Of a DNA stretch of 64,000 bases, positions 22,198 to 30,751 are shown piece by piece; positions within the stretch are counted from its first letter, which is position 1, and every line of letters starts with the position of its first letter. This stretch comes from Solirubrobacteraceae bacterium (GTDB lineage: Bacteria; Actinomycetota; Thermoleophilia; Solirubrobacterales; Solirubrobacteraceae): contig JAPSGI010000005.1 of the NCBI GenBank assembly GCA_031177685.1, forward strand, positions 124,001 through 188,000. The letters are read 5' to 3'. A program made the position numbers and the translations under genes. The notes beneath the pieces were generated by a model. That model worked only from the letters and a program-made list of their open reading frames with translations. It searched no databases and was not told the DNA's origin.

Positions 22198-22679
22198 CCG
22201 TGGTCGCGTCCGGCCGCGACGCCGCGGCGGTACGCGGCCCGGCGGATCGCCGGAGCTGCGGCCAGGCCGGTGCTGCTCTCCAGGCGGCGCACCAGCTCAT
22301 GGTGGATGCCGTTGGTCCGGCTCGCGCCGCGCTTCGCCGCACCGACGAGGTAGCCGAGGCGCATCGCGGCGGTGTCGCTGCGCGCGACGCGAGTGGCCAG
22401 TGCGTCGGCGGTCGCGGTGTAGAGCGCTCCGACGGTCTGGATGTCCGCGCCCGTCCGCGCGTTCTCCACGCAGGTCGAGAGCTTGACGCCGCCGGCGAGC
22501 AGGACGTCCCCGGGCGCCTTGGCCAGGGCGGCCTGGATCGCGGGGACGCTGTCGTTGCAGGCCGCCGGCAGGCGCGGCTCGTCCTCGCTCGCGCACCCGC
22601 TGGCGGCCAGGGCGGCGACGGCGAGCGCCGCGGCGCCTCCTCCAAAGGTCGTACGGCCGAACGTTTCCCGCCGCCCCAT
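22194..22679 (-). CDS. lipoprotein of unknown function
   Basis: This 161-residue protein starts at an ATG with a positively charged N-terminus and a hydrophobic alanine-rich stretch, ending in the lipobox LAASGC near residue 29, so it is a predicted lipoprotein anchored on the outer face of the membrane. The mature part is mainly helical and alanine-rich and has cysteines in AACNDS and STCVENA that might form a disulfide. No known domain is recognised. Its stop overlaps the alpha/beta-hydrolase start by 4 nt. It may be tat-exported because two arginines precede the hydrophobic core, but there is no full twin-arginine motif. Confidence 0.7.
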   Translation of the reverse strand: MGRRETFGRTTFGGGAAALAVAALAASGCASEDEPRLPAACNDSVPAIQAALAKAPGDVLLAGGVKLSTCVENARTGADIQTVGALYTATADALATRVARSDTAAMRLGYLVGAAKRGASRTNGIHHELVRRLESSTGLAAAPAIRRAAYRRGVAAGRDHG

Positions 22680-22728
22680 CGGCCGCCGATCCTAGCTGCG
22701 ACGAGGCAGTTCGCCCCTCAACCCTGTG

Positions 22729-22758
22729 CAAAAAGCCCCAACTGCTCATGTCTGGGGC
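22729..22758 (-). terminator. hairpin followed by T5, intrinsic terminator or attenuator on the minus strand
   Basis: Read on the minus strand, GCCCCA (22758-22753), a 12-nt loop and TGGGGC (22740-22735) form a six-pair stem followed directly by TTTT(T)G. This is one of very few stem plus U-tract arrangements in the window. It lies about 50 bp upstream of the lipoprotein gene on the same strand and antisense to the start region of the BldC-like gene. It could stop readthrough from the HD-GYP gene, or act as a 5'-leader attenuator of the lipoprotein operon. The stem is short, so the call is moderate. Confidence 0.45.
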
Positions 22759-22780
22759 CAAAACGCCGTCAATTAGGAAC

Positions 22781-23026
22781 ATGTCTACGCATTCCAAGGT
22801 CAGCCGTCTCGGCCTCTCCACCTCCCAGGCGGCTCGTGAGCTTGGGGTTTCCCTGGGGACCGTGCGGCGCTGGGCCGACATGGGCTACCTGCGTGCCTAC
22901 CGCACGCCGGGCGGCCAGCGCCGGTTCAACGCCGATCAGATCGAGGCGTTCGTCCTCTCGCTCGAACAGCGCGGCCGCTCGCGTCCGTCGACCGAGTCGG
23001 ACGCCGCGACGCCCCGCGCTTCCTAG
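22781..23026 (+). CDS. BldC-like MerR-family DNA-binding protein
   Basis: This 81-residue protein consists essentially of one winged helix-turn-helix of the MerR/BldC type: LSTSQAARELGVSLGTVRRW (helices 1-2), DMGYLRAYRTPGGQRRF (wing) and a final helix DQIEAFVLSLE. The TPGGQRRF wing matches BldC of Streptomyces (TLGGHRRY). BldC binds DNA as head-to-tail multimers and controls development. The ATG at 22781 is preferred because AGGAAC sits just before it; an in-frame ATG at 22748 would add 11 residues and lies in the loop of the inverted repeat. It converges with the HD-GYP gene. Confidence 0.85.
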   Translation: MSTHSKVSRLGLSTSQAARELGVSLGTVRRWADMGYLRAYRTPGGQRRFNADQIEAFVLSLEQRGRSRPSTESDAATPRAS

Positions 23027-23057
23027 CTTTCCGCCGAAGCGACCCCCCAAGGGCGGC

Positions 23058-23088
23058 GCGGCCCGGGACCATCCCTCCCCCGGGCCGC
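23058..23088 (+). terminator. 10-bp GC hairpin after the BldC-like gene
   Basis: The arms gcggcccggg (23058-23067) and cccgggccgc (23079-23088) pair perfectly around an 11-nt loop, 32 nt downstream of the BldC-like stop. No U-run follows, which is common for actinobacterial terminators and makes the function less certain. Because the stem is symmetric it could also act on minus-strand transcripts leaving the HD-GYP gene. Confidence 0.5.
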
Positions 23089-23110
23089 GTCGGCCCCTGC
23101 CCGATCGCAT

Positions 23111-23151
23111 CGAGTGGACTTGACCGCGATATACGCGGCTAACTCCACTCG
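23111..23151. repeat. nested inverted repeat in the convergent intergenic space
   Basis: An outer pair, cgagtgga (23111-23118) and tccactcg (23144-23151), encloses an inner pair, ccgcg (23124-23128) and cgcgg (23134-23138), around an ATATA loop. The structure lies between the converging BldC-like and HD-GYP genes, 10 bp from the latter's stop codon. It may be a bidirectional terminator working on the minus strand, or a protein-binding site. No T-run is present on either side. Confidence 0.5.
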
Positions 23152-23160
23152 CTGCGGCCG

Positions 23161-24525
23161 TTAGCGGCCGCTCGCCTCGTCGGCGGTCGGACTGGTAGCC
23201 CCGACCGCCTCGCCGATCCGGCGCTCGAGCGCGAGCTCCTCGCCGAAGTCGGCCCAGTCGGCGTGGCGGTAGTCGACGCCGCGGCCGGCGAGCAGCTGCG
23301 CCAGCGCCTCGACGTAGCGGCCCTCGAGCTGCGTGCCGGAGACGCGCCGCAGCTCGGTGAGCGCTTCGAAGGACGAGACCGGCGTGCGGTAGGTGTCGTC
23401 GGCGGTGAGGGTGTCGTAGACCTCCGCGACCGCGACCACCTTCGCGAGCTCCGGGATCTCCTCGGCCTTCAGCCCGTCCGGGTAGCCGCGCCCGTCGAGG
23501 CGTTCGTGGTGCGCCCGGACGATCTCCGCGACCGGACCGTAGACGCCGAGGTCGCGCAGGAGGTCGGCGCCCATCACCGGGTGCTCCCGGATCGTCTCCC
23601 AGTCCTGCTCGGTCAGCGTCCGGCCCCGCTCCATCACCCGATCCGACAACCCGAACCGCCCGATGTCGTGCAGCAGCCCCGCGGTATGCGCCAGCTCGCA
23701 CTCGCGCTCCGACATCCCCACCGCCTCAGCAATGTCCCGCGAGAACGCAGCCACCGCGGCGGCATGCCGCGCCGCCCGCGCATCCCGGTGGTTCAGCGTC
23801 CGGATCAGACCCGAGAGGACGCCCCACGAGAGAGCCGCGTATTGCCTCGTCCGCTCTCGCGCCGTAACGACCAGCCGCGCCATGTACGTGAACGCGAAGA
23901 TCGAGACGAGGACGAAGACCACCGCGCCCAGCCCGACGCTCCGATAGATCCCTGCGGCGGCGACGGTCAGGACGACGTTGATGGAGAGGGCCGGGATGAG
24001 GTTGGCGTGCGCGCGAAATCGTTGGACCACTTCGGCTTCGTGGAGCCAAGCCGAGAGGACCGTCACGGTCGTGATGTTCAAAGCGAGCTGAATCGCCGCC
24101 ACCGCGCCTAGGGATAGATAGAACTCGGGACTGTCGGCTGCTGGCGCCAGTGAGCTGAAGAGAGACGCGCCCAACAGCGTCGGCGCCCCGCTGCTCAGCA
24201 CATTGATCCCGAGGGCCGAGAGCCGATAACGGTCTGCAAGCCAAAACACCAACTCGGGCATGACGGCGACGAAGAAAGCCGCTTCGGGACCGAGGAATGC
24301 CACCGCAAGCATCACGGGCACAAAAGACCCGGAAATAAGCATCGGACCGTCCCAGCTCGCCGACGCCAGATTGGCTGCGATAGCGGATCCGACGAGAACC
24401 AGGCACAGGGGCGCCGTGATGGTCGTGTGCGAGGCGAACGCGAACCAGGCGAACGTCGCGATCGATCCAGTCGCGCCGATCGCCGTTGCAACCCAGGGGC
24501 GAGCTATCTGCGCACGAGACGCCAC
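23161..24525 (-). CDS. HD-GYP phosphodiesterase with N-terminal multi-span membrane sensor domain
   Basis: This 454-residue protein is expected to hydrolyse cyclic di-GMP or a related cyclic dinucleotide. Residues ~10-220 form a six- to eight-helix membrane domain with the conserved pieces SGSFVPVMLAVAFLGPEAA (66-83), ADRYRL (97-102) and HANLIPALSIN (173-183). The HD-GYP domain follows with LLHDIGRFGL (His286-Asp287), HPVMGADLL and HHERLDGRGYPDG (339-351), all catalytic signatures intact. The membrane domain is shared with the histidine kinase at 26227-27636. Start GTG at 24525. A 29-residue membrane peptide gene lies 55 bp upstream on the same strand. G+C falls to about 58-60% in the sensor half against about 70% in the catalytic half (hand counts of single 60-base lines). 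Confidence 0.9.
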   Translation of the reverse strand: MASRAQIARPWVATAIGATGSIATFAWFAFASHTTITAPLCLVLVGSAIAANLASASWDGPMLISGSFVPVMLAVAFLGPEAAFFVAVMPELVFWLADRYRLSALGINVLSSGAPTLLGASLFSSLAPAADSPEFYLSLGAVAAIQLALNITTVTVLSAWLHEAEVVQRFRAHANLIPALSINVVLTVAAAGIYRSVGLGAVVFVLVSIFAFTYMARLVVTARERTRQYAALSWGVLSGLIRTLNHRDARAARHAAAVAAFSRDIAEAVGMSERECELAHTAGLLHDIGRFGLSDRVMERGRTLTEQDWETIREHPVMGADLLRDLGVYGPVAEIVRAHHERLDGRGYPDGLKAEEIPELAKVVAVAEVYDTLTADDTYRTPVSSFEALTELRRVSGTQLEGRYVEALAQLLAGRGVDYRHADWADFGEELALERRIGEAVGATSPTADEASGR

Positions 24526-24580
24526 AACCCAACGCTACCGCTGGATTCGTGGCACTAGTCCTTCGGGTGTGGCGCCGGTC

Positions 24581-24670
24581 TTAGCGAGTGCGCATGTACC
24601 CGCCACTCGCCGCGATAACGCCGATCGCAGCGATGAGAAGCGGGTAGAGCTTCAGCTTCAAATGATCCAT
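24581..24670 (-). CDS. 29-residue membrane peptide
   Basis: An ATG at 24670 opens a 29-codon frame ending TAA at 24581. The Shine-Dalgarno AAGGGAGG lies 7-8 nt before the ATG, among the strongest in the window. The peptide starts MDHLKLKLYP, continues with one hydrophobic helix (about residues 9-24, LLIAAIGVIAASGGY) and ends MRTR. Charge places both ends with positive residues, so orientation is uncertain. It precedes the HD-GYP gene by 55 bp on the same strand and is probably co-transcribed. No family is known to me; a role as a small regulator of the sensor protein is only a guess. Confidence 0.6.
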   Translation of the reverse strand: MDHLKLKLYPLLIAAIGVIAASGGYMRTR

Positions 24671-24715
24671 AGCGAGCCTCCCTTGGGCCCCTTTGGGCAG
24701 GTTTGGGTAGGGACG

Positions 24716-24746
24716 ACGCTAGCAGCGTTTCGGCCGAAATGCACAA
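24716..24746 (-). promoter_or_regulatory. candidate promoter with internal palindrome upstream of the membrane peptide
   Basis: On the minus strand a -35-like TTGTGC (24746-24741) and a -10-like TAGCGT (24721-24716) are separated by 19 nt. The spacer contains the perfect 12-bp palindrome tttcggccgaaa (24728-24739), suitable as a repressor or activator site. The predicted start would lie about 40 nt upstream of the peptide's ATG. Both hexamers are weak, so the promoter is tentative, while the palindrome is a direct observation. Confidence 0.4.
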
Positions 24747-24781
24747 GTTTCTGCCCGGGAGCTGTGCGGAAACTGTTGTGC
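24741..24781. repeat. imperfect inverted repeat between divergent regulator genes
   Basis: The left arm gcacaagtttctgc (24741-24754) matches the reverse complement of the right arm gcggaaactgttgtgc (24766-24781) except for a 2-nt insertion and one mismatch, with 11 bp between. It lies between the divergent membrane-peptide and MerR genes. MerR-type proteins bind inverted repeats of this size inside their own promoter regions, so this is a candidate operator for the adjacent MerR-like protein. Confidence 0.4.
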
Positions 24782-24821
24782 CGCATGCCTCGTGCCGCGC
24801 ACCTGCTCCGATTCATTGGGC

Positions 24822-25718
24822 GTGCGCTACTTGAAGACCAGCGAGGCTGCGGCGCTCCTCAATGTCAGCCCGAATACGTTGCGGGCCTGGGAGCGTCGGT
24901 TCGGCTATCCAAAGCCTCAGCGATCTCCCGGCAAGCACCGGCTCTACACGCACGGCGAGATCGCCGCGCTGAAGGACGCACTTCAGGAGGGGCTGTCGAT
25001 TTCCTCGGCCGTATCCCGTGCGCGCGAGGGCCTGAGCGCTGATGCCGACACCCTGATCGGCGCGCTGTCGTCCTTCGATCGGGAGCGCGCCGACTCTGCG
25101 ATGGAGGCGGCGCTTGCACTCCGGTCGATCGAGCGCTCGGTCGAGGAGATCCTCCTGCCCTCGCTGGAGGAGCTTGAGCAGCGCCACGGCCTCGACAGCG
25201 CCCGCTGGGCGCTTGCCGCTCGCTGGGCGAGCGACTGGCTGCGGCGCGCGCAGCGGCTCACGCCTCCGCCGGTCCGGCGGGTTTCCTTGCTGATCGGCGA
25301 TGCGTCGCGCGACGAGTTGGACCCGGACGCGCCGGCCATCCGAGCACTCGAGCTGCTGTGCGCCCGGGCGGGTGCCCGCCTGTTGTGCCTCTCCGTCCGC
25401 GGGATCGCAGGTCTTGGCGACGCCCTCGCCGTCGCCGAGCCCGACGCGGTCGTCCTCGCTGGCGGCTTCGCCCGCGACGACGAAGTCGCGCGATGGGCCT
25501 ACTCCGTCCGGTCCGCCGCCGGAGCGCTTCCCGTCGCGCTGTACCGGCGAGAAGTACTCCGTCCGCTCCGCGCAAGAACAACCGGCGCGGCCCATCTGTC
25601 CTCAGCGCCCTCCGAAGCCCAGAGCCAGGTACTCGAACTGGTCGAGGCCGGTCGCCTCGCATCCGAGAAGAGAACCTCGCCCACACGACTGGTCCCGCGC
25701 GAGAAGCGCGCGGGGTGA
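24822..25718 (+). CDS. MerR-family regulator with degenerate cobalamin-binding-like domain (CarH/LitR architecture)
   Basis: This 298-residue protein has an N-terminal MerR helix-turn-helix (YLKTSEAAALLNVSPNTLRAW, residues ~3-23, wing to ~45), a helical bundle (about 65-160) and a Rossmann-like C-terminal domain (about 165-255, RRVSLLIGDASRDELD to EPDAVVLAGGF). This is the layout of the B12-dependent photoreceptor CarH. However, the D-x-H-x-x-G cobalamin ligand motif is replaced by DASRDELD, and the W-x9-EH motif of the bundle is not present. It probably senses another ligand or partner. GTG 24822 is chosen; an upstream in-frame GTG at 24792 would add 10 residues. It is divergent from the peptide/HD-GYP genes and 28 bp before the PAS gene. 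Confidence 0.75.
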   Translation: MRYLKTSEAAALLNVSPNTLRAWERRFGYPKPQRSPGKHRLYTHGEIAALKDALQEGLSISSAVSRAREGLSADADTLIGALSSFDRERADSAMEAALALRSIERSVEEILLPSLEELEQRHGLDSARWALAARWASDWLRRAQRLTPPPVRRVSLLIGDASRDELDPDAPAIRALELLCARAGARLLCLSVRGIAGLGDALAVAEPDAVVLAGGFARDDEVARWAYSVRSAAGALPVALYRREVLRPLRARTTGAAHLSSAPSEAQSQVLELVEAGRLASEKRTSPTRLVPREKRAG

Positions 25719-25746
25719 CCCATGAACGACGGAAGGAACTGACGAC

Positions 25747-26250
25747 ATGAGCACGGATGCACAAGGTCAGTCCTCGCTGCGAGTCCTCCAGCGAGATCGC
25801 TCGACCGAACCTCTCAAGGTCTTCTGCGGCCATTGCGGCCGCTCGCCCGACAACGAGTCCGAGGCAGACTCACGCGTCTGCACCAAGTGCGGCCTCGGCC
25901 TGATGCTTCAGGCGCCCGCGGACGCCGCGCCGGGACCCTCCGACCCATTCCTCGTGGTCGACGGTGCGCTGACAATCTGCGCCGTGTCGCGCATCGCGGA
26001 GCGCTTGCTCGAGGTGAGCGAGACCGAGGCAGTCAACCGCCACGTCGCAGAGTTCCTAGTCCCAGCGGACGCTGAGAGTTCTTCGGGGGAGAGCCTGGCC
26101 TCACTGCTCGCTTGGGCTGCCCGCGGCGAAACGCCATCGGCACAGGTGGTCATCCGGCCGGCGAACACCTTCGGCGTCCGCTACTGGGCCCGCGTCGGTC
26201 CGTGCGGCCCTCCGACCGCAGCGCTGCTAGTCCTCGCCGACGCGCGTTAG
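25747..26250 (+). CDS. zinc-ribbon/PAS-domain protein
   Basis: This 167-residue protein has a four-cysteine zinc ribbon (C-G-H-C near residue 27 and C-T-K-C near residue 45). It is followed by a PAS-like domain from about residue 65 (PFLVVDGALTICAVSRIAERLLEVSETEAVNRHVAEFL), the region where PAS domains read the ligand and start with a reference to self. No output domain follows, so it probably acts by binding another protein or DNA. A GGAAGGAAC Shine-Dalgarno precedes the ATG. It lies 28 bp downstream of the MerR-like gene on the same strand. Its last 24 bp overlap the 3' end of the convergent kinase gene. Confidence 0.75.
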   Translation: MSTDAQGQSSLRVLQRDRSTEPLKVFCGHCGRSPDNESEADSRVCTKCGLGLMLQAPADAAPGPSDPFLVVDGALTICAVSRIAERLLEVSETEAVNRHVAEFLVPADAESSSGESLASLLAWAARGETPSAQVVIRPANTFGVRYWARVGPCGPPTAALLVLADAR

Positions 26251-27636
26251 CCCAAAGCGGTCGCCGCTCGTCAGAGGGTTCGGCGATGAGCGGCCATTTT
26301 CGACGGTAATGATTGGGATCGTTGCGGTAATCCTCGTTCCGCTGCCTATTTCGGTTTCGACGGAAAGCCGCCCGTTGCGAGCGTCACAACGCTCGGAACA
26401 TGAGGCAAGCCCGATATGTCCGTCAGATACGGCCACATCACGCACTACCTCATCGAAGCCGACTCCGTCATCTACGACCTCGAGAGTCACAACATGCTCC
26501 TGACGTGTTACAGAGACCTGTAGGCGCTCGGCGCGAGCATGCTTCGCCACATTCGTCACTAGCTCCCTTGCTAGCGACAGAATCAACCGGTCTTCGACGC
26601 CTTCAGCATCCGCGTCTACCGATACGCTTGCATCGAATCCCGCTCTAGCGGCCGCGTTGCTCACGAGTTGGCTCAGGCCCGTGGCGAGACCAGCGCGATC
26701 GGCCACTGTCGGGTGCAGGTCCTTAACGGCGGTACGAAGCTGACGAACAGTCTCATCGACGGCCGCAACGGCGCTACCAAGCGAGTGCGACCCGCCACGT
26801 GCTACGTCTTCCAAATCTTGTCGGGCACAAAGGAGCGTCTGAAGTGCCCCGTCGTGGAGCGACTCGGCCAACGCCTTCCGCTCGCGGGCCTCAGCGTCGA
26901 GGGTTTGCGCGACGAGCCGCCCGCGACTCGCCGCGAGTTCTTCGACCCTACGGGCGCGGTCTCTTGCCAGAAGGGTTTGTCGGACCATGTAGTTGAAGGC
27001 GACAATCAGCCCGCATACGAAAACAACGACTTCAAGCCCAGTGCTGACGTAGATGTTGGCAGCCGCAACGACGAGGGCAACATTGATGGCAAGCGCTGGC
27101 ACTAGCTTGACGTGGCTTCGCAACCGATCCCGGATCGGCGACCCATCCAGAATCCCGATGAGGGAAGTGATCAAAAGGTCGTTGAGAAGTAGCGTGCCGG
27201 CTCCGGTGGCAGCCAGCGCGAGATAGAACCAAAGTCCCGGCGTCAGGTCGAGCGCCCCGAAGGCGGCGGCTCCGCCTACCGCGGTTGCCCCGACGGCGAA
27301 TAGATTGATCGGTACCACGGCGACGCGGTAACGCTGGACGGTCCAAGCACCGAGCTCAGATGCCACGACGATGACTAAGGCGGCCGTTGGCCCGAGGAAC
27401 GCGATCGCAAGCATCAATGGCAGAAACGACGCATCGATTAGCAGCCTTCCTTCGAGCGGGACATACGCAATGGATGCGCCGATCGCACATAACGCGAGAG
27501 CGATGGTCAGGGGATGCCCGAGTGAACCATGCGGTGACGTCGCGCCGACCACGCAGCACGCAATAAGCCCGGGAAACGCAACTGCGTGCGCGCGCGAGGG
27601 ATTCGGTCGACGATGCCTGAATCGATGGCCACTCAC
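26227..27636 (-). CDS. NarL-type sensor histidine kinase with multi-span membrane sensor domain
   Basis: This 469-residue kinase has a membrane domain at ~20-220 homologous to that of the HD-GYP protein: DASFLPLMLAIAFLGPTAA (68-86), VQRYRV (100-105) and HVKLVPALAINVALVVAAA (175-193). A short coiled linker leads to the HisKA_3 dimerisation domain, with phospho-acceptor His261 in ESLHDGALQTLL. The ATPase domain has the N box LARELVTNVAKHA, DDGVGFD, and a C-terminal GSGTRITATIP. It should phosphorylate the response regulator encoded upstream, whose stop overlaps its GTG start by 4 nt. G+C is low for the window (33 of 60 bases at 26281-26340), suggesting transfer. Confidence 0.9.
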   Translation of the reverse strand: MSGHRFRHRRPNPSRAHAVAFPGLIACCVVGATSPHGSLGHPLTIALALCAIGASIAYVPLEGRLLIDASFLPLMLAIAFLGPTAALVIVVASELGAWTVQRYRVAVVPINLFAVGATAVGGAAAFGALDLTPGLWFYLALAATGAGTLLLNDLLITSLIGILDGSPIRDRLRSHVKLVPALAINVALVVAAANIYVSTGLEVVVFVCGLIVAFNYMVRQTLLARDRARRVEELAASRGRLVAQTLDAEARERKALAESLHDGALQTLLCARQDLEDVARGGSHSLGSAVAAVDETVRQLRTAVKDLHPTVADRAGLATGLSQLVSNAAARAGFDASVSVDADAEGVEDRLILSLARELVTNVAKHARAERLQVSVTRQEHVVTLEVVDDGVGFDEVVRDVAVSDGHIGLASCSERCDARNGRLSVETEIGSGTRITATIPIITVENGRSSPNPLTSGDRFGLTRVGED

Positions 27637-28277
27637 TGCAGCACCCCCTCCCGCAGCGCCTTGGCCACCGCGGCGGCTCGGTCGTTGACTTCGAGCTTGT
27701 CGTAGATGTTGCTCAGGTGGGTCTTGATGGTGGATGGGCTCAGGAAGAGGATTCGGGCGATCTCCGGGGCGGAGCGGCCTTCGGCGGCGAGGGTGAGGAT
27801 CTCGCGCTCTCGGGGTGTGAGGCGGGGGCGGGGGTCGTGGCGGTGGGCTCGGATCTGGTCGGCGATTCCGTCGTGGAGGTCCGGGGAGAAGACGGTGCGG
27901 CCGCGGGCGACGCGGGTTATCGCGTCGCAGATCGTGCGGCGGTCGACGTCCTTGAGGAGGTATCCGCGGGCGCCCGCGGCGAGGGCGTCGTAGACGCGGT
28001 CGCTGTCGGTGTACGCCGTGAGGACGAGGACGCGCGTGGGGGACTGGACGTCGCTCAGCGCGGTGACGACCTGGATGCCGCTGAGCGACGGCATGTTGAT
28101 GTCGACGACCGCGACGTCGGGCACCAGTTCCCCAATCAGGACGAGTGCATCGCGCCCGTCTTTGGCCTCGCCCACCAGCTCCAGGTCGGGGCGCGCCTTC
28201 ACCGCTCGCGTGATCCCGTCCCTGTAAAGCGGATGGTCGTCGGCCACCAGAACCGTAACGCGTCCCTGCCCGCCCAT
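27633..28277 (-). CDS. NarL/LuxR-family response regulator
   Basis: This 214-residue response regulator has a receiver domain (1-125) with acidic pocket VADDHPLY, phospho-acceptor Asp59 in VVDINMP, Thr in VLTAYTD and Lys in YLLKDVD. A C-terminal LuxR-type helix-turn-helix follows (about 150-205: LTPREREILTLAAEGRSAPEIA, then STIKTHLSNIYDKL). It is translationally coupled (GTGA overlap) to the histidine kinase, so the two form a two-component system. The target promoters are unknown. Its G+C is as high as the genome average (46 of 60 at 27781-27840), unlike its kinase partner. Confidence 0.95.
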   Translation of the reverse strand: MGGQGRVTVLVADDHPLYRDGITRAVKARPDLELVGEAKDGRDALVLIGELVPDVAVVDINMPSLSGIQVVTALSDVQSPTRVLVLTAYTDSDRVYDALAAGARGYLLKDVDRRTICDAITRVARGRTVFSPDLHDGIADQIRAHRHDPRPRLTPREREILTLAAEGRSAPEIARILFLSPSTIKTHLSNIYDKLEVNDRAAAVAKALREGVLQ

Positions 28278-28348
28278 TGCTCAGCGGACTTTGCCATAAC
28301 AGCGCAGCCCCGGGCGCCGGATCGTCCGGTCGGACTAGGCCGATCGGG

Positions 28349-29500
28349 CTACCCCGTGGAGAGGGCTCGCTCGCGCCCGCGACGGCGCGCCTGACGCGCT
28401 CCAGCCGCCGCGGCCAGGCCGAGCAATCCCAGCGGCAGCAGGACCGCGAGCGAGACGACTGCCGCGCCCGCGAACACCTCCAGCACGCGGACCGCGTCGC
28501 GAACCGCGTCGCGCGGCGTCCAGTTGCCGCCGCCGGCTCCACCGTCGCCCTCGCCCTCTGCGACCACGTTCACGCCGACCACCGAGTAGTCGGTGCGGAT
28601 CCGGAGCCGCCGCAGCGACGCCCGCGCCGACGAGATCTCCGCCCGCACGATCCGCAGCCGCTCCCGGATGCTCGCCGTCTCGTTCCGCGTGTCCGCCGCC
28701 GCGAGCTGGCGCAGCAGCCCCTTGCGCTCCGCCAGGGACTCGTCCAGCCGCTCGCGCGCGCTCACGAACGTCCCGGTCACGTCCTGGCTGCTCTGCGTCC
28801 GCGAGCGCACGTGCCCGAGCTTGGACAGCCGCGCCAGGGCGTCGTCGAGCCGCCGCGTCGGGACGCGCAACTGGAACGACGCCCCCGCGCGGCCGTCGTC
28901 GCCCGTGGACACGGACGAGCTCGCGACGATCCCGCCGACCTCGTCGGTCGCGCGGATCACGCCGTCGGAGACCTCCGGCACCTCGCCGGCGGGGGCGGTC
29001 AGGACCAGCGACGCCTGGCGCTCGACCCGCCGGGCGGCGCCCGGCGCGACCCCGGTCGCGCTCAGCGTCTCCTCGGGGACGACACGGTCGCCGGCTTCCG
29101 GCGTGACCGGCGGCTTCGCGGACGGCTCCGCGAGCGACTCGGCCGTCCCGCCGCGCGCCGGGGAAGGCGCGTTCTGTGGCGACGGCTGCATCTCCTCGCC
29201 GCCGGACGACAGGGAAGCTACGACCACGAGCGCCGCCAGCAGCGACGCCGCGGCGCCGAGCGCGGGCATGAGCGTGCGCCGCGACACGCGCACAACCGAG
29301 AGGCGCCGGCGCCCCCGGCCCGCCCCGCCGAACCCCGCCTCCACCCGCGCGTCCAGCTCGCGTGCGAACTCCTGCCGGATCTCCGGCCGCTGCGCCCGCA
29401 CCGCGCGGACGAGCTCGTCCACGGTTTCGCCCGCCAGCGCCGCGTCCAGGGCGGCCAGCTCGCGCTCGACCTCCGGGTCCATCACGTCACGGCGTCGCAT
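28349..29500 (-). CDS. DUF4349 protein with anti-sigma-like N-terminus
   Basis: This 383-residue protein has a soluble N-terminal segment (1-65) rich in charged helices, a membrane helix at ~78-97, a Pro/Ser/Glu-rich linker (100-140), a DUF4349 domain (about 145-340: LVLTAPAGEVPEVSDGVI, GGIVASSSVS, SFQLRVPTRRLDDALARLSKLG, then a coiled coil of ERLDESLAERKGLL) and a second helix ~343-366 with a basic end. Such topology puts the DUF4349 domain outside. The gene overlaps the ECF sigma gene by 14 bp, and membrane-bound proteins in this position usually act as anti-sigma factors; that is inference here since no ZAS zinc motif is seen. Confidence 0.75.
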   Translation of the reverse strand: MRRRDVMDPEVERELAALDAALAGETVDELVRAVRAQRPEIRQEFARELDARVEAGFGGAGRGRRRLSVVRVSRRTLMPALGAAASLLAALVVVASLSSGGEEMQPSPQNAPSPARGGTAESLAEPSAKPPVTPEAGDRVVPEETLSATGVAPGAARRVERQASLVLTAPAGEVPEVSDGVIRATDEVGGIVASSSVSTGDDGRAGASFQLRVPTRRLDDALARLSKLGHVRSRTQSSQDVTGTFVSARERLDESLAERKGLLRQLAAADTRNETASIRERLRIVRAEISSARASLRRLRIRTDYSVVGVNVVAEGEGDGGAGGGNWTPRDAVRDAVRVLEVFAGAAVVSLAVLLPLGLLGLAAAAGARQARRRGRERALSTG

Positions 29501-30053
29501 CGCACGCCCTCCTGAGCCTCTGCACCGCCCGGTGCAGCATCGTGCCCGCGTTGGACTCGGACACTCCGAGCACGCGGGCGATCTCCCGGTTCGACAACCC
29601 GGCGAAGAACTTCAGCGCCACGAGATCGCGGTCGCGCGGCTCCAGCCCGGCCAGCGCCGCGCGCACGACGCCGCGCCGCAGTGCGCCCTCGACCGCGTCC
29701 TCGGCACCCACCGCATCGACATCCGGCACGTCCCCCGCCAGCGACGCGCGGCGCCGGCGCCGGCGCAGCTCGTCCAGCGCCGCGTTGCGCGCGATCCCGA
29801 ACAGCCACGCCCGCGGCTCGCCGCGCCGCGCGTCGAACGAGCGCCGCCGCCGGTACGCCCGCTCGAACGCGGCCGCGCACACGTCCTCCGCCGCCGAGCG
29901 GTCGCGCAGCAGTCCCGCCACGTACGCGAACACGTCGTCGCGGCTGTCGCGGTAGAGCGCGTCGAAGTCGAGGGCGGGGGAGGCGGACTGCGCGGGGACG
30001 GCCACGGCGAGCGTCTCGGTCACGCCCACACTACGGCGCACCCGGGGATTCAT
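29487..30053 (-). CDS. ECF-type RNA polymerase sigma factor
   Basis: This 188-residue sigma factor has region 2 at about 30-100 (FDALYRDSRDDVFAYVAG, AAEDVCAAAFERAYRRRRSFD, PRAWLFGIARNAALDELRRRRRR) and region 4 at about 125-182 (LEPRDRDLVALKFFAGLSNREIARVLGVS). It lacks regions 1 and 3, as usual for extracytoplasmic function sigmas. The ATG at 30053 overlaps the GDPD stop by 1 nt; GTG codons at residues 9 and 11 could also start it. The overlapping DUF4349 gene downstream is the likely membrane-bound regulator. Its target promoter was not recognised in this window. Confidence 0.9.
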   Translation of the reverse strand: MNPRVRRSVGVTETLAVAVPAQSASPALDFDALYRDSRDDVFAYVAGLLRDRSAAEDVCAAAFERAYRRRRSFDARRGEPRAWLFGIARNAALDELRRRRRRASLAGDVPDVDAVGAEDAVEGALRRGVVRAALAGLEPRDRDLVALKFFAGLSNREIARVLGVSESNAGTMLHRAVQRLRRACDATP

Positions 30054-30751
30054 CACATGGCGGGCGAGAACAGCCGCGGATCGTTGGTGATCACGCCGGT
30101 GACGCCGAGGTCGGCGAAGCGGCGGATGGCGTGCGGATCGTCGACGGTCCAGACGAACAGCTCGCCGCCGGCGTCCCGCACCGCCCGCAGCAGGCGCGGC
30201 GTCACGAGCTTCCAGTGCGCCATCAGGGCGTCGCACAGACCCGCGCGCAGCGCCGCCGCCGCCCGCGCCGGCAGCCGCGCGCGGTAGGCGCCGAGCACCA
30301 CGTACGCGGGCAGCGCCGTCACCGGGTGGCGGGTGTAGTCGCGGCGCAGTCGCGGAACCGACCAGCCCAGCCGAGCGCCCGGCTCGGCGGCGCGCAGCGC
30401 GCGCAGGCTCGCGACGTACTGCGTGGAGATCAGCGCCCGCTCCAGCAGCCCGAACGAGCGCAGCGCCTCCAGCACGCGCACCTCGTAGCCGGGCAGCTTG
30501 AGGTCCACGTCCAGCTCCACGCCGGCGTACGCCGCGGACGCGAAGTGCGCGAGGCCCTCCTCCAGCGTGGGCGCGCCGTCCACCGCGCTGTAGTCGTGCG
30601 CCAGCAGCAGGCGGTCGCCGCCGCGCTCGGGCAGCACGTCGAACTCGATCATGTCGACGCCGGCCGCCAGCGCCGCGTCGAAGGACGCCAGCGTGTTCCC
30701 CGGCGCGATCAGGTCGGCGCCCTTGTGCCCGACTCGCCTCAGCGCTGACAC
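30053..30751 (-). CDS. divergent glycerophosphodiester phosphodiesterase-like protein
   Basis: This 232-residue TIM-barrel protein of the GDPD family cleaves glycerophosphodiesters to glycerol-3-phosphate and alcohol. The family core can be followed: GHKGADLIAPGNTLASF at the N-terminus, GVDMIEFDV with the metal-binding E-x-D, LAHDYS with the second His, VELDVDLK and a C-terminal VWTVDDPHAIRRFADLGVTGVITNDP. Departures from consensus are HK for HR and PGNT for PENT. GTG 30751 is chosen because it overlaps the Nei stop by 13 bp and immediately precedes the motif. It is the link between the repair genes and the sigma factor. Confidence 0.8.
   Translation of the reverse strand: MSALRRVGHKGADLIAPGNTLASFDAALAAGVDMIEFDVLPERGGDRLLLAHDYSAVDGAPTLEEGLAHFASAAYAGVELDVDLKLPGYEVRVLEALRSFGLLERALISTQYVASLRALRAAEPGARLGWSVPRLRRDYTRHPVTALPAYVVLGAYRARLPARAAAALRAGLCDALMAHWKLVTPRLLRAVRDAGGELFVWTVDDPHAIRRFADLGVTGVITNDPRLFSPAM

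What the first reader, a model, noticed from the sequence alone, without database searches (positions are those of the whole stretch)
22781..28277. Regulatory island built around a shared, uncharacterised membrane sensor domain
Within 5.5 kb there are two proteins with different outputs, an HD-GYP phosphodiesterase (23161-24525) and a NarL-type histidine kinase (26227-27636), that have the same N-terminal multi-span membrane domain. Shared landmarks are SFxPxMLAxAFLGPxAA, a RYR-x-x-x-x-x-IN segment and H-x-x-L-x-PAL-x-IN. In the block beginning at residue 169 of the HD-GYP protein and 171 of the kinase I count 17 identities in 26 positions by hand. Around them are a BldC-like regulator, a MerR regulator with a degenerate B12-like domain, a zinc-ribbon/PAS protein, a membrane peptide and the cognate response regulator. 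One stimulus might be read by the same sensor and routed both to transcription and to cyclic-dinucleotide turnover. The grouping as one system is inference.
Basis: partly seen in the sequence, partly recalled or inferred. Interest (0 to 1): 0.75.

Follow-up and report, generated by a model that had tools for sequence, protein, structure and literature searches.

The report
Shared membrane sensor in regulatory island
In a soil actinobacterium, a signal-degrading enzyme and a neighbouring sensor kinase carry sister copies of one membrane sensor that is predicted to fold like the vitamin-binding part of ECF transporters, perhaps set upside down in the membrane, inside a conserved group of regulators that also holds a tiny membrane protein gene.

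Summary
In detail: the HD-GYP protein and the histidine kinase share a 230-residue membrane domain (41% identity over 232 aa, E 2e-39). The reading as one sensor feeding two outputs is partly supported. Relatives (Solirubrobacteraceae) keep a regulator group around the HD-GYP gene: MerR in 39 of 42 loci, zinc-ribbon/PAS gene in 34, second MerR in 35, BldC-like gene in 26. A kinase with this sensor is seen in 1 of 42. In the window it stands where relatives have the second MerR, which this genome has on another contig. The two kinase sensors form one clade (99/90). A confident sensor model (pLDDT 93) matches S-components of ECF transporters (Z 9.8-16; best unrelated entry 8.3), a fold known from LytS-type receptors. 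An extra C-terminal membrane helix and mirror-image loop charges predict that the core is inverted here; this is inference. The ligand is unknown. New variant of a known kind.

The parts
22781..23026 (+). small BldC-like / excisionase-type HTH protein (ORF opens at 22748; internal ATG at 22781)
   Evidence: TIGR01764 over cut-off, BldC model under cut-off; on the opposite strand to HD-GYP in 26 of 42 relative loci
23161..24525 (-). HD-GYP protein, 454 aa: N-terminal S-component-fold sensor, long helix, HD-GYP domain
   Evidence: HD and HHExxDGxGYP motifs present, Glu at a conserved Asp position
23848..24522 (-). sensor domain of the HD-GYP protein (modelled alone; eight membrane helices predicted)
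   Evidence: model pLDDT 93.0, pTM 0.89; S-component matches
24581..24670 (-). 29-residue single-helix membrane micropeptide in front of the HD-GYP gene, with a Shine-Dalgarno-like AGGGAGG
24792..25718 (+). MerR regulator 1, divergent from HD-GYP; CarH-like HTH and helical cap, no recognised B12-binding domain
   Evidence: 39 of 42 relative loci
25747..26250 (+). zinc-ribbon / PAS-like protein
   Evidence: sub-cut-off DmmA-like zinc-ribbon and PAS_4 hits; 34 of 42 relative loci
26227..27636 (-). histidine kinase, 469 aa, with the sister sensor domain; its 3' end overlaps the zinc-ribbon/PAS gene by 24 bases
   Evidence: second example L097:1-936
26929..27624 (-). sensor domain of the kinase
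   Evidence: 41% identical to the HD-GYP sensor; one clade with the partial sensor of the L097 kinase, 99/90
27633..28277 (-). response regulator (REC + LuxR-type HTH), overlaps the kinase start by 4 bases

Best explanation
The two proteins are membrane receptors with one kind of sensor: a domain of the ECF S-component fold with one helix added before it (H0) and one after it (H7). In the model H7 runs as one unbroken 49-residue helix from the membrane into the HD-GYP domain, so a change in the sensor would be passed on by movement of this helix. That would set phosphodiesterase activity in one protein and kinase activity, and so the response regulator, in the other. The HD-GYP receptor, MerR1, the zinc-ribbon/PAS protein, a second MerR and often the BldC-like protein form a conserved regulator group of Solirubrobacteraceae, in some lineages with a small membrane protein encoded just before the receptor, most simply an accessory subunit. 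The kinase/regulator pair was most simply added later, in the lineage of the window and genome G333. Shown: sensor homology, gene order, the micropeptide's conservation, the single clade of the two kinase sensors. Predicted: the fold. Inferred: topology, signal transfer by H7, c-di-GMP as substrate, micropeptide function, co-regulation. Unknown: the ligand.
For: Homology. Fold: (pLDDT 93.0, pTM 0.89); NikM Z 16.0, RibU 14.4, FolT 14.4, BioY 14.1, best unrelated entry 8.3; repeated in the full-length model with HD-GYP chains at Z 22.9 and 22.2. H7 198-246 in one piece. Sequence link: 13 of 54 sensors match MASE9 (best 3.4e-7) and 5 match PF12822, 16 match the FolT-family S-component model, all at E <= 1. 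Regulator group. Second MerR on contig C21 with IleRS and thioredoxin genes, as in relatives. Kinase sensors one clade (99/90), window and L097 HD-GYP sensors sisters (95/91). Micropeptide. The own genome has 16 GGDEF matches.
Against: The window HD-GYP sensor itself matches no relevant Pfam family (best E 0.051, unrelated), so its S-component link rests on a predicted model and on relatives. Foldseek E-values against PDB are 0.02 or worse. HD-GYP activity is not shown, and a conserved Asp position is Glu in 21 of 21 group-type HD-GYPs. The micropeptide was found in only 12 of 40 loci. No expression or co-regulation data. The kinase is known in only two genomes, one on a 3.4-kb contig (L097) that cuts its sensor (45% of tree columns filled) and shows no response regulator. 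Loss of the kinase elsewhere is not excluded.
Confidence: 0.66

Rival explanations
1. The sensor core sits in the membrane as in LytS-type receptors (pocket outside). The arginines of loops L3 and L5 bind an outside anion, as in the pyruvate receptor BtsS, and H7 is not a membrane-crossing helix.
For: BtsS has seven helices, N-terminus outside, and needs Arg72 and Arg99 on the periplasmic side to bind pyruvate; hydropathy tools had wrongly predicted six helices with N-terminus inside (PMC10653868, passages). So positive residues on one side can be ligand residues, and such prediction can fail.
Against: H7 is as hydrophobic as the other membrane helices. Loop charges alternate as for eight helices with N and C inside, though L2 and L6 are near zero and the N-terminus was counted in only 10 and 2 rows. 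15 S-component hits show the opposite pattern. Covariation favours H7 packing antiparallel to H6 by mutual information, only weakly by mean-field DCA.
Confidence: 0.3
2. The kinase pair and the HD-GYP gene form one functional circuit: a single stimulus read by sister sensors drives both c-di-GMP turnover and transcription.
For: Kinase and HD-GYP with sister sensors lie together in two genomes assigned to different genera (window g1, L097 g13), and the RYR, IN and Gly197 landmarks are kept in both window sensors.
Against: Only these two genomes; no such kinase is seen in 41 of 42 relative loci, some of them cut by contig ends. The two sensors are only 41% identical, and origin by copying from the neighbour is neither shown nor rejected (p-AU 0.42).
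Confidence: 0.25
3. The regulator group is only a stable stretch of chromosome (beside fumarase, hydrolase and IleRS genes), not a functional unit.
For: Housekeeping flanks are conserved too: hydrolase in 30 of 42 loci, fumarase in 24 of 42; IleRS and thioredoxin genes beyond the second MerR in the relatives looked at. The window lineage split the group by a rearrangement.
Against: Fumarase changes orientation among relatives (L039 against L041) while the block stays; strong micropeptide hits occur only here (13 of 13); the group-type HD-GYPs are a distinct subfamily (Glu for Asp in 21 of 21 against 0 of 5 outside).
Confidence: 0.3

Closest known systems
LytS-type / 5TMR-LYT receptors (BtsS, YpdA; PF07694), described as S-component-fold receptors by Partipilo and Slotboom 2024 (PMC11109136; outline, Results and Discussion read)
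   Same: S-component-fold membrane domain with an extra N-terminal helix, fused to varied cytosolic outputs including kinase, GGDEF, EAL
   Different: No PF07694 match of the window proteins; one more C-terminal membrane helix; predicted eight helices with N inside against seven with N outside; the paper's main text does not contain 'HD-GYP' and says such kinases among Gram-positives are almost only in Bacillota
MASE9 (PF20972)
   Same: Membrane sensor of signalling proteins (by name); 13 of 54 sensors of this family match the model at E <= 1
   Different: The window HD-GYP sensor gives no match at E <= 1 and the own genome none at E <= 0.001; the held library gave no paper on it (searches; listings only)
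ECF transporter S-components (RibU, FolT, BioY, ThiT, PanT, NikM/CbiM)
   Same: Predicted fold (Z 9.8-16); GP-type turn between H2 and H3
   Different: Fused to signalling outputs; H7 added; loop charges mirrored
HD-GYP c-di-GMP phosphodiesterases (4mcw, PA4781 4r8z, DvhD 9rbz)
   Same: Fold and motifs
   Different: Glu at the Asp aligned to the isDvfD/taDifD position

Membership tests
S-component fold | six-helix core superimposing on solved S-components | tested here: met
   21 S-component entries (NikM/CbiM included) at Z 9.8-16.0, first unrelated entry 8.3; again in the full-length model. A predicted model, not a solved structure
ECF S-component (transport subunit) | free-standing subunit matching PF12822 | tested here: not met
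   fused to HD-GYP or kinase; window HD-GYP sensor no PF12822 match at E <= 1, 5 of 54 sensors match
ECF S-component (transport subunit) | AxxxA motif in helix 1 contacting EcfT | not tested
   feature read in PMC11109136
5TMR-LYT receptor | PF07694 match | tested here: not met
   no match of the window HD-GYP sensor at E <= 1 or of either whole window protein at E <= 0.1; for the other sensors 25 of 29 families were shown, PF07694 not among them
5TMR-LYT receptor | NxR motif between H1 and H2 | tested here: not met
   loop L1 of the window HD-GYP sensor, ASWDGPMLISGS, has none
5TMR-LYT receptor | seven helices, N-terminus outside | tested here: inconclusive
   prediction favours eight, N inside; no experiment
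MASE9 | PF20972 over its cut-off | tested here: not met
   no match for the window HD-GYP sensor, 0 in own genome at E <= 0.001; 13 of 54 sensors match at E <= 1
HD-GYP phosphodiesterase | HD and HHExxDGxGYP motifs, fold | tested here: met
   26 of 26 aligned proteins; fold Z 22.9
HD-GYP phosphodiesterase | Asp of the ADxYD-type motif | tested here: not met
   Glu in 21 of 21 group-type proteins, Asp in 5 of 5 others; Glu may still bind metal
HD-GYP phosphodiesterase | cyclic dinucleotide hydrolysis | not testable with these tools
   needs an enzyme assay
CarH-type B12 photoreceptor (MerR1) | B12-binding domain with cobalt-ligating His | tested here: not met
   significant homology to CarH only over residues 16-131; only a sub-cut-off hit to the helical cap model B12-binding_2
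BldC | NCBIfam BldC model over its cut-off | tested here: not met
   42.5 of 77 bits

The most novel reading that the evidence does not exclude
A widespread class of actinobacterial receptors uses the S-component fold upside down: the two added helices H0 and H7 turn the core over, so the pocket that faces outward in ECF transporters and LytS receptors opens to the cytoplasm and reads an internal (perhaps anionic) ligand or the membrane itself. In some Solirubrobacteraceae such a receptor works with a dedicated 28- to 30-residue membrane subunit.
Probability: 0.45. Interest if true: 0.78.

Novelty: new variant of a known kind. Interest (0 to 1): 0.58.

Why it matters
S-component folds link vitamin transporters and bacterial receptors; those described in the two papers read here have their binding site near the outer face. 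A receptor branch with the same fold inverted would show that one fold can be turned over by adding terminal helices, and would tell where to look for its ligand (inside, not outside). The regulator group also gives a defined place to test how small membrane proteins tune cyclic-dinucleotide enzymes, and a case of one sensor also found on a kinase beside an enzyme that bears it.

Tried and rejected
Tried without result: A2 as query of the search for related loci (no stretch conserved enough; A3 used instead). Literature in the held library: MASE9 and sister names gave 1 and 4 papers with unrelated titles (listings only); Conexibacter with HD-GYP gave none; of 10 papers listed (of 86) for 'S-component fold', 'inverted topology', 'sensor', none held the first two together. 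Repeats as shared operators in 22500-28600: only short, GC-rich, chance-like pairs among those shown.

Considered and rejected: B12/light sensing by MerR1. Kinase pair as core of the group. Chance similarity of the two N-termini. Left open: origin of the kinase sensor by copying from the neighbouring HD-GYP gene (p-AU 0.42; HD-GYP sensors as one side of a branch without the kinases only 70/54).

Results against or weak for the inverted core: mean-field DCA gave null fractions of 0.045 to 0.18 for H6-H7 antiparallel packing. Mutual information over all rows was stronger but open to subfamily effects, so it was redone inside two subsets: 0.067 for 39 rows like the window, 0.0004 for 125 others, 0.0004 combined. 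In the 39-row subset the control hairpins were not detected either (0.71, 0.86, 0.22), so that set is too small. In the S-component control, 16 loci were fetched, one (L288) was dropped because its picked frame was not hydrophobic, 15 used.

Parts of the data used: A4 took 52 of 98 fetched sensors plus the two of the window; A5 64 of 77 plus two; A8 25 relatives. Four of the further matches were not fetched. One search kept the best 80 of 117 places.
Full report
WHAT IS THERE. All genes are at the stated places. The HD-GYP gene (23161-24525) and the kinase gene (26227-27636) run on the minus strand. The kinase gene overlaps its response regulator gene by 4 bases and the end of the zinc-ribbon/PAS gene by 24. 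The two N-termini align over 232 residues at 41% identity, E 2e-39. Shuffled kinase N-termini reach at most 23.1 bits against 135 (100 shuffles). A third protein with such a domain, an HD-GYP paralogue, is at G000:C18:134171-135520.

WHO ELSE HAS IT. A profile of the two domains finds relatives in 51 of 299 genomes of the class (E <= 1e-3) and 58 of 146 of the family (E <= 1e-8); a wider profile (A4) finds 92 of 296 genomes of the phylum (E <= 1e-8). Among the 98 fetched loci (L039-L136) most carry HD-GYP outputs. Of ten proteins picked for lacking an HD-GYP hit, eight are GGDEF-EAL, one is PAS-GGDEF and one is a histidine kinase (L097). A scan of named genomes gives Conexibacter arvalis, other Conexibacter, Svornostia abyssi and Paraconexibacter antarcticus among the group-type relatives, with many metagenome bins, mostly titled Solirubrobacteraceae or Solirubrobacterales and some titled otherwise. 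The unnamed family f1 is taken to be Solirubrobacteraceae because its contigs recur there (for example the 1,837,847-base contig of G107 and of C. arvalis).

THE REGULATOR GROUP. Counted loci: 40 of the 98 with a HD-GYP output at least 62% identical to the window's, plus L097 and L125, which are cut, 42 in all, window not counted. On the strand opposite to the HD-GYP gene and within about 6 kb, MerR1 is found in 39, the zinc-ribbon/PAS gene in 34, a second MerR in 35, the BldC-like gene in 26; a kinase like the window's in 1. Many misses are contig ends: with at least 3.5 kb upstream the counts are MerR1 33, zinc-ribbon/PAS 29, second MerR 32, kinase 0 of 34. The window lacks the second MerR at this place. 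Its orthologue (65% identical to that of Conexibacter arvalis) is well inside contig C21, with IleRS and thioredoxin genes, its partners in L147 and L141. So the order was probably broken just after the zinc-ribbon/PAS gene, where the kinase pair now lies. L097, a 3,370-base contig of genome G333, has the same layout: sensor-kinase, zinc-ribbon/PAS, MerR1, micropeptide, HD-GYP. In a tree of 55 sensors the two kinase sensors are one clade (99/90; the L097 one fills only 45% of columns), the two HD-GYP sensors of the same genomes are sisters (95/91), and all group sensors are split from 11 outside ones at 100/100. Whether the kinase sensor came from its neighbour is open (p-AU 0.42). The kinase thus most simply entered at or before the common ancestor of these two lineages and has been kept in both.

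THE FOLD (predicted). AlphaFold2 with 66 sequences gives pLDDT 93.0 and pTM 0.89. Foldseek's first 18 PDB rows are S-components of ECF transporters, with E-values of 0.02 to 0.66 and probabilities of 0.91 to 1.00; no row has E <= 0.001. VIA-align gives NikM 16.0, RibU 14.4, FolT 14.4, BioY 14.1, and down to 9.8 for 21 S-component entries, with the first unrelated entry (Lnt) at 8.3. The full-length model (pLDDT 84.7, pTM 0.67) repeats this and places the output with HD-GYP chains (Z 22.9, 22.2). Sequence models agree weakly: at E <= 1, MASE9 matches 13 of 54 sensors (best 3.4e-7) and PF12822 5 (best 5.9e-5), the FolT-type S-component model 16 (best 1.5e-4; window copy 0.029, under the cut-off). 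The S-component fold in receptors is published for the 5TMR/LytS type (PMC11109136; outline, Results and Discussion read).

THE ORIENTATION (inference). The model has H0, the six-helix core H1-H6, and H7, which runs unbroken from 198 to 246 into the HD-GYP domain. H7 is as hydrophobic as the other helices. Mean net charge is positive in the N-terminus (counted in only 10 and 2 rows), L1, L3, L5 and C-terminus, negative in L0 and L4, and near zero in L2 and L6 (alignments of 54 and 66 rows). Fifteen S-component hits show the reverse: L4 +2.47, before H1 +1.53, after H6 +2.67; L1, L2, L3 and L5 between -0.20 and +0.07. In the published receptors the loops alternate and the H1-H2 side is extracellular; that S-components have N and C inside is recalled. 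With a cytoplasmic output and a membrane-crossing H7, the core here must be turned over. Mutual information supports H7 folding back on H6 (0.0004 combined), with controls H4-H5 0.0125, H3-H4 0.0535, H2-H3 0.032; DCA is weak. Caution: in BtsS arginines on the outside are needed for pyruvate binding and simple topology prediction failed (PMC10653868, passages read). Among the most constant residues are Asn107, next to L3, and Gly197, the H6-H7 turn, each in 66 of 66, and Glu90 in H3 in 31 of 34 rows like the window.

THE MICROPEPTIDE. Between the HD-GYP gene and MerR1 lies a 29-codon gene, MDHLKLKLYPLLIAAIGVIAASGGYMRTR. A screen for any short hydrophobic frame with a Shine-Dalgarno-like site in the same gap of 40 loci (window included) finds this peptide in 11 and nothing else in any; a pattern search adds one, 12 of 40. 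Window and L097 copies differ at 6, 4 and 19 sites by codon position, with 12 synonymous and 7 non-synonymous codons, as expected for a coding gene under selection; other pairs are less lopsided. A profile finds it in 14 of 146 family genomes: 13 hits at E <= 4.5e-6, one per genome, each beside the group's HD-GYP gene, and one borderline hit (E 0.0099) elsewhere. It is single-copy in the own genome. Function is inferred only; that small one-helix proteins can tune membrane sensors is general knowledge, recalled.

THE OUTPUTS. The HD-GYP domain keeps HD and HHExxDGxGYP (26 of 26 aligned), but Glu stands at the Asp of the ADxYD-type motif in 21 of 21 group-type proteins and 0 of 5 others (aligned to Asp in 4mcw and 5z7c). 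The genome has 16 GGDEF matches, so c-di-GMP is probably made. MerR1 resembles CarH only in its HTH and cap.

VERDICT. A real, conserved regulator group around a c-di-GMP-type receptor, with a sensor of known (predicted) fold in a possibly new membrane orientation, a small partner gene in some lineages, and a lineage-specific kinase carrying the same sensor. The claim of one stimulus with two outputs is possible but untested.

Noticed in passing
L054, L058, L063 (another family of the same order): HD-GYP proteins with the related sensor stand near BldC-like genes (L063 also near a MerR at 46% identity), so the link of this receptor to such regulators may be older than the family.
   Followed up: no
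L190: Two frames with this sensor domain within 2.4 kb on one contig of Solirubrobacter soli.
   Followed up: no
L163, L188, L197: Records titled Bifidobacterium breve and Chlamydiae carry Solirubrobacteraceae-like genes, perhaps mislabelled bins.
   Followed up: no
24581-24670: Conserved 29-residue membrane micropeptide in front of the HD-GYP gene.
   Followed up: yes
28349-30236: A DUF4349 protein (Pfam) and what reads like a sigma-factor gene (not tested with a family model) follow the kinase pair; the DUF4349 protein had no tblastn hit in the fetched relatives' loci.
   Followed up: no
L217 (G000:C21:79000-97000): The second MerR with IleRS and thioredoxin genes lies on another contig, which suggests a rearrangement at the place of the kinase pair.
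   Followed up: partly
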